Below the pieces are notes generated by a model. That model was not told the origin of the DNA and searched no databases. It was given only the letters and a program-made list of their open reading frames with translations. Shown piece after piece: positions 39,579 through 42,500 of a DNA stretch of 64,000 nucleotides. The DNA is taken from NCBI GenBank assembly GCA_021772435.1, contig JAJFLZ010000037.1, positions 1-64,000 on the forward strand, read 5' to 3'. This DNA comes from Chlamydiota bacterium. GTDB taxonomy: Bacteria; Chlamydiota; Chlamydiia; Chlamydiales; JACKPQ01. The translations under genes were made by a program, and so were the position numbers. The first letter of the stretch is position 1; each line of letters starts with the position of its first letter.

Positions 39579-40895
39579 TTGAAAAAAAAATGTCTCATCA
39601 TTACGTCATCGGGCGGTGGAGGGCATCTTCAAGCAGCAAAAGCCAAGGCGCATGAGCTTAAAGAGCAAGATCCAAGTCTTGAAATCATTCAACGCGATAT
39701 TTTACTCGACTGGCTAGGCAAAAGACTTGGCGGCTTTTTGGCAGGTTGCTGGAATTTTGCTCAAAAGCGCGGCGATGTGGCTTTTCAAAAAGTGATGATT
39801 CGTAACATGCACCTTGTGGGATTATTCACATGGATGCCTACCTTTTTCTGTGCTTTTTTTCTTATCTATTTCCAAGATATTGATCTAGTTATTGACACCC
39901 AACCCAATGGAACATCTGCGATTTTAACTGCATTTGTACTTGCAGAAAAACTAAAAAACCGCGCACGGCGCTACGAAAAAGTCTTAGTCGATTTGCCAAC
40001 AGACAAAGCCGGCCACTACTTTCAACCTATCAAAAAAATGAAAGCCGCCAAGCGCAAATCCATTTACCTCATCACAACTAAACCCTTATTGTCAGATGGC
40101 CAAACAGAACAAGATTTCTGGGATGAGCATACCGGTTTGCCTATTGAAAACATCCTCTACAGCGAATTTCCTCTACGTCCTAAATTTAAAGATATTGACC
40201 CTCTTCCCAAACACAAAAGCTGTACTATTGCACCTAGAATTTCTTCCGATAGCGAATGGCAGCTCATTCAATCCGTTTTAGATAAAGGCCATCTTGATTA
40301 TGACTACTGCAAACCTTATCTCGATATCACTATTCCTCCAAATGCGTACGTTTCAACTTTGATGCTAGGGTCTCAGCCTGCAAAAAAAGCCACACTTAGC
40401 TACGTGCAATCCTTTATGGAACTTAAAAAAGAGAACGCGCCAATACGAGATGATTTACTCTTTGTTTTTTGCAGATCGCACCGAACCAAAAAAAGCCTGC
40501 TCAATTTAGTGTGTAATCAAATTTTACAAGCAGATTGCTTTTCAAACTCTCTGACAATTATTCCACTGACTTTTCAAGATGACTCCGTCATTGCGCCTTT
40601 ATTTGCTCGTAGTGATGCCACACTGACGCGCTCTGGGGGAATTACATCTATGGAGCTGCTTTCGATTATGGGAGGCCGTATTTGGATCCATTCCGAATCA
40701 AAAAAATCAGACCAACTTCTCCATGGCATTCCATTTTGGGAAAAGGGAAACGCAAAATACCTAGAGGCACATAAAGGTGCTCACATTGTCACCCCCTCAA
40801 TCTTCAAAAACAAAGCCAAAAGCTATTTTGAAAACAGCACAGTATTTAAAAATGCAGACCAATCGCCTGCTTGTGCTAGTTCTAACAACGTGTGA
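39579..40895 (+). CDS. Glycosyltransferase-like protein (MurG/MGDG-synthase type N-terminus)
   Basis: The 438-residue protein begins with LIITSSGGGGHLQAAKAKA, the glycine-rich loop plus His of GT-B enzymes such as MurG and monogalactosyldiacylglycerol synthase. A hydrophobic stretch (near 85-105, LFTWMPTFFCAFFLIYF) may attach it to the membrane. A C-terminal region with PLFARSDATLTRSGGITSMELLS resembles the donor-sugar site (SGG...E) of these enzymes. The middle is divergent. It may glycosylate a lipid, but the acceptor and sugar cannot be inferred. It starts 3 bp after rho and may be co-transcribed. Its last 73 bp overlap the opposite-strand gene. Confidence 0.62.
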   Translation: MKKKCLIITSSGGGGHLQAAKAKAHELKEQDPSLEIIQRDILLDWLGKRLGGFLAGCWNFAQKRGDVAFQKVMIRNMHLVGLFTWMPTFFCAFFLIYFQDIDLVIDTQPNGTSAILTAFVLAEKLKNRARRYEKVLVDLPTDKAGHYFQPIKKMKAAKRKSIYLITTKPLLSDGQTEQDFWDEHTGLPIENILYSEFPLRPKFKDIDPLPKHKSCTIAPRISSDSEWQLIQSVLDKGHLDYDYCKPYLDITIPPNAYVSTLMLGSQPAKKATLSYVQSFMELKKENAPIRDDLLFVFCRSHRTKKSLLNLVCNQILQADCFSNSLTIIPLTFQDDSVIAPLFARSDATLTRSGGITSMELLSIMGGRIWIHSESKKSDQLLHGIPFWEKGNAKYLEAHKGAHIVTPSIFKNKAKSYFENSTVFKNADQSPACASSNNV

Positions 40896-41371
40896 TCATC
40901 AGCACCAATATCGTTACTTAAACTGGTAAGATATGGGCGTACTTCGCCTGCTGAATCGGCATGTGCTAAGCCCTTAGTAAATCCTTGCTGAAACGGCTTC
41001 CAAATTTTGGATCGCCTGCGAATTTTTTGAGCAAAAACTTGCAGTTCAGGAGTCATCCTGACAAAGGCCAAATACCGTAAAATCGGAATATCCTTTGTTG
41101 CAGCCCCCCGCTCTTCAATCTTACCGCGGTTAAATCCAAGAGAAATCAAGGACCAATTTGCTAAAGGCTCTAAAAGCTCGTAGATGTTTTTCTTATCTAC
41201 ATCCGATAAGGGTAAATCCAAATAAGACACTTCTTTAGCTGGAGAACTAGACTCTGTTTGTTTTGCAATATACGTGAATTCTTCCTCGAGGCTCTCTTCA
41301 AGATTCAACAGCAGGAAAGTGGCAGCTACGACCAAAATACCAATCCCCCATAAATACGTTTTACGTTTCAT
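40823..41371 (-). CDS. Membrane-anchored hypothetical protein, paralogue A
   Basis: Unrecognised family. From ATG 41371 the 182-residue protein has an N-terminal membrane helix (YLWGIGILVVAATFLLLNL) followed by an acidic linker; the bulk is probably periplasmic. The C-terminal part (IWKPFQQGFTKGL, VRPYLTSLSNDIGA, GDWSAFLNTVLFSK) matches the neighbouring gene: W-x2-F-x2-G, then PYL with six or so residues to G, then DW-x2-FLN-x2-L. The two are therefore diverged duplicates. The 3' end overlaps the glycosyltransferase-like gene by 73 bp. Confidence 0.6.
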   Translation of the reverse strand: MKRKTYLWGIGILVVAATFLLLNLEESLEEEFTYIAKQTESSSPAKEVSYLDLPLSDVDKKNIYELLEPLANWSLISLGFNRGKIEERGAATKDIPILRYLAFVRMTPELQVFAQKIRRRSKIWKPFQQGFTKGLAHADSAGEVRPYLTSLSNDIGADDHTLLELAQAGDWSAFLNTVLFSK

Positions 41372-41428
41372 AAATTGCCACAATAATTTGAGTTTTTATT
41401 GCAAAGGAATATAAATACAGAATTAAAA

Positions 41429-42016
41429 TCACAATAGCGCATTTAAAAACCCATCCCAATCTTCACGCTGAATGTAATGAGCAAGCAGCTGTTTTTCAAC
41501 ACCAACTGCTTTTGCAAAACCTGCCAAATAAGGATAGAGCTGGCCACGATCAAATTCTTTTTTTAGGTTAGGAAATAAGCCACCCTTAAACTGTGACCAC
41601 TTAATGGTGCTTTTCTTGACCATATGCATATAGTGTTTGCGTTGAGGGTCCGAAAAAATAAAACCTAAAAATCTCAATGGATGTACATGGCGTACACTAT
41701 CACCGCACCGCTCCATTTCAGACTTTTTCTTGAGGAGAGTGAACCAACCGCTTTTTGCCATTGACTTGATAATAAAATGAATATTCTGACCATCTTCTTG
41801 CGTTAAAGTCAGTGTGTAAAAATCTTCAGATCCAAGATCATTGCCTTTCATCAGATAAAAATTTGCATGTCCAATGCACGGAGACAGCTTCAGCGCTGTA
41901 CTTCTCACAGTCATTTCTTCTTTCGAATAATCCCAACAGAAGGCTTTGATCTCAGTAAACTCAGATGAGGCAAAAACTCGAAAACCAAAAAATACACAAA
42001 ATAACCAAAGCTTCAT
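41429..42016 (-). CDS. Exported hypothetical protein, paralogue B
   Basis: Unrecognised 195-residue protein with a cleavable-looking signal peptide (MKLWLFCVFFGFRVFASSEF). The mature region is basic, with a C-terminal part (KWSQFKGGLFPNL, LYPYLAGFAKAVGV, EDWDGFLNALL) that matches paralogue A downstream. A good AGGGA site lies before the ATG. B is first and A follows after 57 bp on the same strand, consistent with a tandem duplication. The function is unknown; export suggests an envelope or host-facing role. Confidence 0.62.
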   Translation of the reverse strand: MKLWLFCVFFGFRVFASSEFTEIKAFCWDYSKEEMTVRSTALKLSPCIGHANFYLMKGNDLGSEDFYTLTLTQEDGQNIHFIIKSMAKSGWFTLLKKKSEMERCGDSVRHVHPLRFLGFIFSDPQRKHYMHMVKKSTIKWSQFKGGLFPNLKKEFDRGQLYPYLAGFAKAVGVEKQLLAHYIQREDWDGFLNALL

Positions 42017-42131: not shown

Positions 42132-42155
42132 TATAACTATTAATTGATAGTTATA
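42132..42155. promoter_or_regulatory. Inverted repeat upstream of the holin-like gene
   Basis: TATAACTAT-TAATTG-ATAGTTATA, 9-bp perfect arms, ends 27 bp before the holin-like ATG in the divergent gap 42017-42182. Position suits an operator; no further support. Confidence 0.35.
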
Positions 42156-42182
42156 AAGAGTAATCAAAACAAAGGGTTATTG

Positions 42183-42500
42183 ATGAAAAAATTGAATGTA
42201 TGGAGCTTCGGCCTTGCAATTGGTATTGTATGTGGCGCAGCTGCAATTTTAACGGGCTGGTTTGCCGCATTAGGTTGGGGCGATCTATATGTCCGCGTGA
42301 TGTCGTCGGTTTATGTCGGTTTCGAACCAGGATTTTGGGGCGGAATTGTCGGCGGTATTTGGTCATTTTTCTGGGGAGGTCTTTGGGGTCTTTTAGTTGC
42401 TTATCTTTACAACGTGATGAGCGAAGAAAAAAAGAAGCCAGAGCCAAAGAAAAAAGCTGCTCCTAGAAAGAAAACAACAACAGCTAAGAAAAAACGCTAA
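42183..42500 (+). CDS. Small holin-like membrane protein with Lys-rich tail
   Basis: From ATG 42183 (AAAGGG upstream) the 105-residue protein has two to three membrane segments (NVWSFGLAIGIVCGAAAILTGW, GFWGGIVGGIWSFFWGGLWG). The glycine/tryptophan pattern resembles the small chromosomal proteins often annotated 'bacteriophage holin' and found widely outside phages. There are no phage genes around it. The C-terminus, after YLYNVMSEEKKK, is a 30-residue run of Lys, Ala, Pro and Thr, like the tails of histone H1-type proteins of Chlamydia (Hc1/Hc2). That tail would face the cytoplasm and could bind nucleic acid or acidic lipid. Confidence 0.7.
   Translation: MKKLNVWSFGLAIGIVCGAAAILTGWFAALGWGDLYVRVMSSVYVGFEPGFWGGIVGGIWSFFWGGLWGLLVAYLYNVMSEEKKKPEPKKKAAPRKKTTTAKKKR

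What the first reader, a model, noticed from the sequence alone, without database searches (positions are those of the whole stretch)
40823..42016. New exported paralogous family
Two neighbouring genes share a C-terminal pattern W-x2-F-x2-G ... PYL ... G ... DW-x2-FLN-x2-L, although the rest is very diverged and one is membrane-anchored while the other has a cleavable signal. I know no family with this pattern; it may be Chlamydiae-specific.
Basis: seen in the sequence. Interest (0 to 1): 0.5.

Follow-up and report, generated by a model that had tools for sequence, protein, structure and literature searches.

The report
Exported CT734-family pair, undescribed chlamydial domain
Two neighbouring genes encode distant copies of a probably exported helical domain found in most chlamydiae, apparently including the human pathogens' lipoprotein CT734, which has no described domain or function and which in many amoeba-type relatives is joined to a ubiquitin-like module and sits beside a likely outer-membrane barrel gene.

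Summary
P0001 (40823-41371 -) and P0002 (41429-42016 -) share a ~130-residue C-terminal domain (BLASTP E 7e-18, no gaps; 63.5 bits against at most 23.5 for shuffles). No convincing Pfam, NCBIfam, PHROG or PDB match covers it. A profile finds it in 204 of 232 Chlamydiota genomes searched. By gene order the Chlamydia member is CT734, a putative lipoprotein printed in 2006 as a hypothetical Chlamydiales signature protein, so the family is not new; the domain is undescribed. AlphaFold gives a confident nine-helix domain without a close PDB match. New here: Parachlamydia-like members carry an exported ubiquitin-like N-terminal module (Pfam above cut-off in two; fold match to ubiquitin) and lie beside a predicted outer-membrane barrel gene (53 of 55 genomes); another group fuses the domain to a degenerate M16-peptidase-like part. 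Best reading: an envelope-facing protein-binding adaptor, conserved helical domain plus exchangeable N-terminal module. Function is inferred, not shown.

The parts
40823..41371 (-). P0001: divergent CT734-domain protein, 182 aa, probable N-terminal membrane anchor (alternative TTG start at 41383)
41303..41353 (-). hydrophobic stretch of P0001 (about residues 7-23), probable signal anchor
   Evidence: read from the sequence; hydrophobicity
40835..41224 (-). CT734-type domain of P0001 (residues 50-179); the His of the HPLRFL motif is replaced (IPILRYL)
41429..42016 (-). P0002: canonical CT734-domain protein, 195 aa
41969..42016 (-). probable cleavable signal peptide of P0002 (residues 1-16, ...FRVFA)
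   Evidence: read from the sequence; no signal-peptide program run
41432..41824 (-). CT734-type nine-helix domain of P0002 (residues 65-195; mean pLDDT 95-98 per block of ten from residue 71 on)
41666..41683 (-). HPLRFL motif of P0002 (residues 112-117); H in 143 and P in 146 of 153 family proteins
41372..41428 (-). 57-base gap between the two genes, same strand; co-transcription likely (inferred)
39579..40895 (+). neighbouring gene, glycosyltransferase-like by my reading (Pfam only E 0.02); its relatives lie next to the family gene in several other genomes; overlaps the 3' end of P0001 by 73 bases, convergent
42144..42500 (+). small protein without a Pfam match upstream, divergent; its relatives also sit here in a few genomes

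Best explanation
The pair are two members of the phylum-wide CT734 family. The protein is exported across the inner membrane by a Sec-type signal or lipobox, and its shared C-terminal part folds into a nine-helix domain that works as a protein-binding platform in the periplasm or at the inner face of the outer membrane, docking onto a partner of the chlamydial envelope through the conserved HPLRFL/W-x2-F-x2-G region. Lineages equip this fixed domain with exchangeable N-terminal parts: little more than a signal (window pair, many others), a lipid anchor (Chlamydia), a ubiquitin-like beta-grasp module (Parachlamydia-like groups, where a predicted outer-membrane barrel is encoded next door), or a non-catalytic M16-like part. 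In the window P0002 would be the canonical soluble copy and P0001 a fast-evolving membrane-tethered copy. Shown by computation: homology, distribution, predicted fold, architectures, gene pairing. Inferred: export, location, binding role, binding region and partner.
For: Homology and controls. 204 of 232 Chlamydiota genomes, 128 of 137 of the more complete ones (own genome included). Hydrophobic N-terminus in 143 of 153 proteins, 18 of them with a lipobox-like motif by a loose pattern. Confident nine-helix model and matching helices in a distant relative. Conserved adjacency: of 55 genomes with a strong hit (E<1e-50) to the barrel-like neighbour, 53 have it within 1634 bases of the family gene, median gap 168; up to 13 of these gave the barrel profile its rows and count by construction, which leaves 40 of 42. 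The neighbour matches the outer-membrane barrel family PF13505 in 3 of 13 members, best 6.5e-6. N-terminal ubiquitin-like module. M16-like part: PF05193 in 15 of 21 long members at E<=0.1, best 1.3e-6, and no HxxEH in 26 of 26 members of 380 or more residues. CT734 is called a putative lipoprotein in print (passages).
Against: No experiment seen here places any member in the envelope; signal peptides were judged by a crude test and by eye, and 10 of 153 members failed it. None of the 117 genomes with a match to the barrel is of the Chlamydiaceae-type family f7 or of the window's family f1, so the barrel cannot be the universal partner. In the window and in G026 the genes next door look like unrelated housekeeping genes. 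The domain's closest solved structures are weak (best Z 4.2), so a binding role by likeness to helical repeats is only a hint. The domain is missing from all 8 genomes of family f2, so it is not needed for a chlamydial envelope as such.
Confidence: 0.4

Rival explanations
1. Dedicated periplasmic chaperone or assembly factor: the helical domain binds an unfolded or newly made outer-membrane protein and helps its insertion; in Parachlamydia-like groups the client is the barrel encoded next door.
For: Tight gene pairing with a predicted barrel in 53 of 55 genomes; hydrophobic N-termini.
Against: The client gene has no match in families f1 and f7, where the domain is still present; the conserved C-terminal tail and the N-terminal module would need separate explanations.
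Confidence: 0.15
2. Host-directed effector: exported by Sec and then released (for instance by a type II route), with the N-terminal module mimicking host ubiquitin.
For: Ubiquitin-like module directly after the signal in Parachlamydia-like members; chlamydiae are known to release some Sec-exported proteins into host cells (recalled, not tested).
Against: The window pair and the Chlamydia protein have no PF00240 match; no di-glycine end was seen in the module; a lipobox in the Chlamydia protein points to the membrane; presence does not follow the type III export gate, found in 7 of 8 genomes of family f2 that lack the domain (this bears on a type III route only).
Confidence: 0.13
3. Structural envelope protein: a minor lipoprotein or wall-associated component that holds inner and outer membrane or the cysteine-rich outer layer together.
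For: Phylum-wide presence, lipobox in the Chlamydia protein (sequence; pattern).
Against: No wall-binding domain found by Pfam in the members scanned; absence in family f2; no pattern with the cysteine-rich protein family PF03504, matched in 4 of 10 genomes with the domain and 4 of 20 without.
Confidence: 0.15

Closest known systems
CT734 / CTL0103 of Chlamydia trachomatis (putative lipoprotein, Chlamydiales signature protein)
   Same: Same C-terminal domain. The G026 protein (218 residues) and the G007 protein (232 from an upstream start, 217 from the matching Met) match the profile at E 1.3e-46 and 8.7e-46. In G026 the gene order reads serS-ribD-ribBA-ribE-x-family-AGCS-PEBP-SET-MBL-ftsK by my reading; the SET protein of C. 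trachomatis is CT737 (search listing), hence CT734 by counting back.
   Different: Window proteins lack the lipobox and the Chlamydia N-terminal region, come as a tandem pair, and sit between a glycosyltransferase-like gene and a pcnB-like gene.
Ubiquitin family (PF00240), only for Parachlamydia-like relatives
   Same: Beta-grasp module after the signal; two members above the Pfam cut-off; predicted module superposes on ubiquitin with Z 7.2, rmsd 1.7 over 57 residues.
   Different: Fused to the helical domain, exported, no di-glycine end seen; no match in the window pair.
M16 peptidase inactive domain (PF05193), only for another group of relatives
   Same: Weak to moderate match N-terminal to the helical domain in 15 of 21.
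   Different: No HxxEH zinc motif; no match in the window pair.
HEAT/ARM-type helical repeats (Hsm3, CAND1, CLASP2)
   Same: A series of short helices; best structural neighbours among the chains compared.
   Different: Z at most 4.2 over 86 residues; no sequence link; may be only a common arrangement.

Membership tests
CT734 family (Chlamydiales signature protein) | Homology to the Chlamydia protein encoded between ribE and the SET-domain gene | tested here: met
   One profile hit in each listed genome of family f7; gene order in L107; CT737 = SET protein (search listing). CT734's own record was not available, so the name rests on gene order and length.
CT734 family (Chlamydiales signature protein) | Restricted to chlamydiae | tested here: inconclusive
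   One motif scan of genome contigs: 32 pattern matches, 16 confirmed relatives, 15 with chlamydial titles, 1 titled Verrucomicrobia whose contig length (503,668) equals that of G165:C3, a genome the tool lists in this phylum; no relatives in viral contigs by a like scan. No other phylum was searched with the full profile.
Any described Pfam/NCBIfam/PHROG domain | Match over the shared helical domain | tested here: not met
   None for P0001 and P0002 at E<=10 (weak matches may be filtered). Domain-only set of 65: no Pfam family in more than 3 members (DUF3667, best 0.054), best single-member hit 5.3e-4 (DUF2428); PHROGs single members only, best 0.0017. Full-length set of 37: Pfam hits besides ubiquitin and NCBIfam hits in single members only.
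HEAT/ARM helical-repeat proteins | Fold | tested here: inconclusive
   Best Z 4.2, rmsd 3.9, 86 aligned; Foldseek best E 0.62.
Ubiquitin family (relatives, not window) | PF00240 match over the curated cut-off | tested here: met
   Met by L075 (31.3 bits) and L068 (26.5) against 25.4; L015 21.6, below. 3 of 43 candidates match at E<=0.01; the other 40 do not.
Ubiquitin family (window pair) | PF00240 match | tested here: not met
   No hit at E<=10; N-terminal part of P0002 modelled with low confidence.
M16 peptidase (relatives) | HxxEH zinc-binding motif | tested here: not met
   0 of 26 members of 380 or more residues (one of them, L066, has no M16-like part).
Type III secretion-linked protein | Occurs with the type III export gate | tested here: not met
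   Family f2: gate in 7 of 8, domain at E<=0.01 in 0 of 8.
Inc proteins | Bilobed hydrophobic domain | not tested
   None seen by eye in P0001 or P0002; no program run.

The most novel reading that the evidence does not exclude
Chlamydiae export a ubiquitin-fold module fused to a phylum-specific helical domain, and use it outside the bacterial cytoplasm, either as an envelope-assembly module working with its neighbouring outer-membrane barrel or as a ubiquitin mimic that meets the host; CT734 would be the stripped-down form of the same machine in human pathogens.
Probability: 0.15. Interest if true: 0.75.

Novelty: new variant of a known kind. Interest (0 to 1): 0.45.

Why it matters
A gene found in 204 of 232 chlamydial genomes searched, apparently including the human pathogens, has no named domain in the libraries searched, no relative of known structure found here and no function in the passages seen. 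Giving it a domain boundary, a confident predicted fold, a set of architectures and, in one large group, a likely outer-membrane partner turns an old 'hypothetical signature protein' into something that can be tested. An exported ubiquitin-like module is, as far as I recall, unusual for bacteria; two paper searches listed nothing whose title or abstract start reports it.

Tried and rejected
Known domain: Pfam and NCBIfam for the pair; Pfam/NCBIfam for 37 members and Pfam/PHROGs for 65 domains: scattered single-member hits, best 5.3e-4. Two PDB profile searches: best E 0.017 (Abl interactor 2) and 0.012 (an entry named Gogy), short stretches. Foldseek against PDB best E 0.62, against viral models best E 3.5. 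The fold is not claimed to be new, since a weak match does not show that.

Type III link: rejected as a general explanation. Link with the cysteine-rich outer-membrane protein PF03504: no pattern, though that model is narrow. Viral origin: no relatives by one scan. Promoters and terminators: 8 promoter-like sites against 4.5 +/- 2.1 in shuffles and 1 terminator-like site against 1.8 +/- 1.3; not informative. Tree of 153 domains, few columns: P0002 groups with one G001 copy (99/89) and P0001 with the other (100/98), so the duplication probably predates the split of the two genomes; P0001's further placement near L062 joins long branches and is not relied on. Literature: the spelling CT734 or CT_734 occurs in 7 held papers, 4 of which also name Chlamydia; CTL0103 in 2, one of them new. 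Passages were seen in these 5 and none gives a function. One missense change and one SNV in the gene are reported in laboratory L2 derivatives, and a transposon hit lies at residue 221 of 222, which says nothing about need. PMC4209131 on ubiquitination genes in chlamydiae holds none of three terms for such a module. Section 12 of PMC2811131 was read; it speaks of chlamydia-specific lipoproteins in general and its text does not hold 'CT734'.

Against the ubiquitin reading: 40 of 43 candidates give no Pfam match at E<=0.01; the 34-sequence profile matches only the first part of ubiquitin (positions 7-43); Foldseek E-values of the model to ubiquitin are only 0.09-0.3 although its probability is 1.00; and the tool warns that a Z of 7-8 can be a common arrangement, though all 50 rows shown are ubiquitin, NEDD8, ISG15 or their variants.

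Rows dropped before counts: alignment A1 left out 4 of the 41 proteins (the most diverged or second copies); A7 used 65 of 73 picked domains; A9 used 34 of the 43 N-terminal regions (left out: the three with a Pfam ubiquitin match, plus L014, L017, L087, L093, L094, L096). The 153 proteins are those in the loci fetched, not all matches, whose listing was cut; frames running off a contig end were left out. Of 28 genomes without a match the 20 that were listed were searched again; with the domain-only profile G073 gave a weak hit (E 0.0026) and G002 one at 0.27.

Full report
Observation. Two minus-strand genes at 40823-41371 (P0001, 182 residues) and 41429-42016 (P0002, 195 residues) share their C-terminal 130 residues: 31 of 130 identical, no gaps, E 7e-18. 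The real pair scores 63.5 bits; the 1860 of 2000 shuffles that gave an alignment reach at most 23.5 and the reversed sequence 14.6. A profile of relatives built without the window pair finds these two and nothing else in 356 window frames. A search of the own genome shows no third copy.

Family. With P0002 as a single query 31 of 38 related genomes match, with P0001 28 of 38 (the window's own included). With a 37-sequence profile 204 of 232 Chlamydiota genomes match, 128 of 137 of the more complete ones (the window's own included). Of the 28 without a match the 20 listed were searched again with a domain-only profile: none of 8 genomes of family f2 has it at E 0.01 or better, nor have G005, G014, G015 and G017; G073 gives a weak hit at 0.0026. 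One motif scan of genome contigs gave 16 confirmed loci, 15 with chlamydial titles and one titled Verrucomicrobia whose contig length equals that of a contig of G165, which the tool lists in this phylum. No viral relatives by a like scan.

Identity with CT734. In G026, a 1.1-Mb genome, the family gene lies between ribE plus a 448-residue gene and an AGCS-type transporter, followed by a PEBP-like, a SET-domain, a metallo-beta-lactamase-like and an ftsK gene (gene names are my reading of the sequences). The SET-domain protein of C. trachomatis is CT737 (search listing and starts of abstracts), so the family gene is CT734 by counting back. Griffiths and colleagues (PMC1403754; passages seen) list CT734 as a 221-residue Chlamydiales-specific hypothetical protein with a 240-residue Protochlamydia relative at E 1e-8 and mid-late expression; G111, a 2.4-Mb single-contig genome, has a 240-residue member. 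Later papers call it a putative lipoprotein (PMC9318579; PMC11925237; passages seen). The G026 protein has no Pfam match at E<=1. So the family is in print; its domain is not described in the libraries searched.

Domain. AlphaFold2 on P0002 with 20 other sequences gives block means of pLDDT 95-98 over residues 71-195 (pTM 0.68 for the whole chain): nine helices after a short leading one; residues 1-60 are low-confidence. A distant relative (L075, 254 residues) gives the same nine helices in register, at +44/+45. Foldseek finds no PDB match better than E 0.62; a second look gives at most Z 4.2 to HEAT-type repeats. Most conserved positions in 153 fetched members: Pro113 (146), His112 (143), Phe143 (141), Phe167 (141), Gly105 (139), Trp187 (129), Trp140 (128). 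P0001 and its G001 relative are among the 10 without His112. Sixteen fetched loci hold two or three copies side by side (some are close relatives of each other).

Architectures. 143 of 153 members have a hydrophobic N-terminal stretch, 18 of them with a lipobox-like motif by a loose pattern that also catches doubtful cases. A conserved tail of the type IPRxGDxxRYDM ends 50 of 153 by the looser pattern and 44 by the stricter one. Most of these, 43 of 50, have a region of some size between signal and domain, and it looks like ubiquitin: PF00240 above cut-off in L075 and L068, below in L015, 3 of 43 candidates at E 0.01. A profile of 34 N-terminal regions, none of which matches PF00240 at that level on its own, still ranks ubiquitins first in the PDB (all 60 rows shown are ubiquitin or made from it; most single-copy ubiquitins E 0.002-0.01, two at 1e-5 and 3e-4; the poly-ubiquitin values are inflated by repeats), though only over the first part of the fold. 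A 4-sequence profile that includes the three Pfam-positive members gives 8e-8 for Dsk2 and about 2e-6 for ubiquitin; the two profiles match each other (probability 92.8 over 45 columns). The predicted module superposes on ubiquitin with Z 7.2, rmsd 1.7 over 57 residues, at moderate pLDDT; Foldseek gives probability 1.00 but E only 0.09. No di-glycine end was seen. In another group (family f23 mainly) the domain follows an M16-like part: PF05193 in 15 of 21 at E 0.1 or better, best 1.3e-6, without HxxEH in 26 of 26 long members. One member without a signal by the crude test, L066, has two tandem domains.

Neighbourhood. In the window and in relatives from several families the gene is convergent with a glycosyltransferase-like gene downstream of a rho-like gene (names are my reading). 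In Parachlamydia-like genomes it lies beside a ~260-residue protein with outer-membrane barrel matches (PF13505 in 3 of 13, best 6.5e-6). Of 55 genomes with a hit to that protein at E<1e-50, 53 have it within 1634 bases of the family gene (median gap 168), one has the two on different contigs, and for one the family position was not listed. The barrel profile was built from 13 such neighbours, so up to 13 of the 53 count by construction; 40 of 42 remain. None of the 117 genomes that match the barrel at all belongs to families f1 (window) or f7 (Chlamydiaceae-type). Presence of the domain does not follow the type III export gate.

Interpretation. Probable export, wide retention, one confident helical domain, changing N-terminal parts and a conserved outer-membrane neighbour in one large group fit best an envelope-side protein-binding adaptor. 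This is inference; no partner, location or activity is shown. Rivals are an assembly factor for the barrel, a structural envelope protein and a host-directed ubiquitin mimic; the tests that would separate them are given. For the window pair, the tree puts each copy with a different copy of G001, so the duplication probably predates these two genomes, and G001's P0001-type protein begins with an ordinary-looking signal, so the anchor seen in P0001 is a local trait.

Noticed in passing
L075 5671-6435, L068 1157-1933, L015 1453-2259 and about 40 relatives: Signal followed by a ubiquitin-like module in Parachlamydia-like chlamydiae; by eye L093 and L094 carry the module twice.
   Followed up: partly
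L067 2882-3643, L124 7288-8094 and relatives: Predicted outer-membrane barrel family of about 260 residues that lies beside the CT734-type gene in 53 of 55 genomes with a strong hit; weak or no match elsewhere.
   Followed up: partly
L070, L072, L063, L071, L149 and others: M16-like part without the HxxEH motif in front of the CT734-type domain, in L070 and L072 as two tandem fusion genes.
   Followed up: partly
genome G000: No match to the type III export gate family PF00771 in the window's own genome (92.6% complete), though 27 of 30 genomes searched have one; a gap in the assembly or a real loss.
   Followed up: no
window 40823-40895: The 3' ends of P0001 (-) and the glycosyltransferase-like gene (+) overlap by 73 bases.
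   Followed up: no
CT734 / CTL0103 in print: A missense change (PMC9318579) and an SNV (PMC4590699) in this gene are reported in laboratory L2 lineages; chance, shared ancestry or adaptation to cell culture.
   Followed up: no
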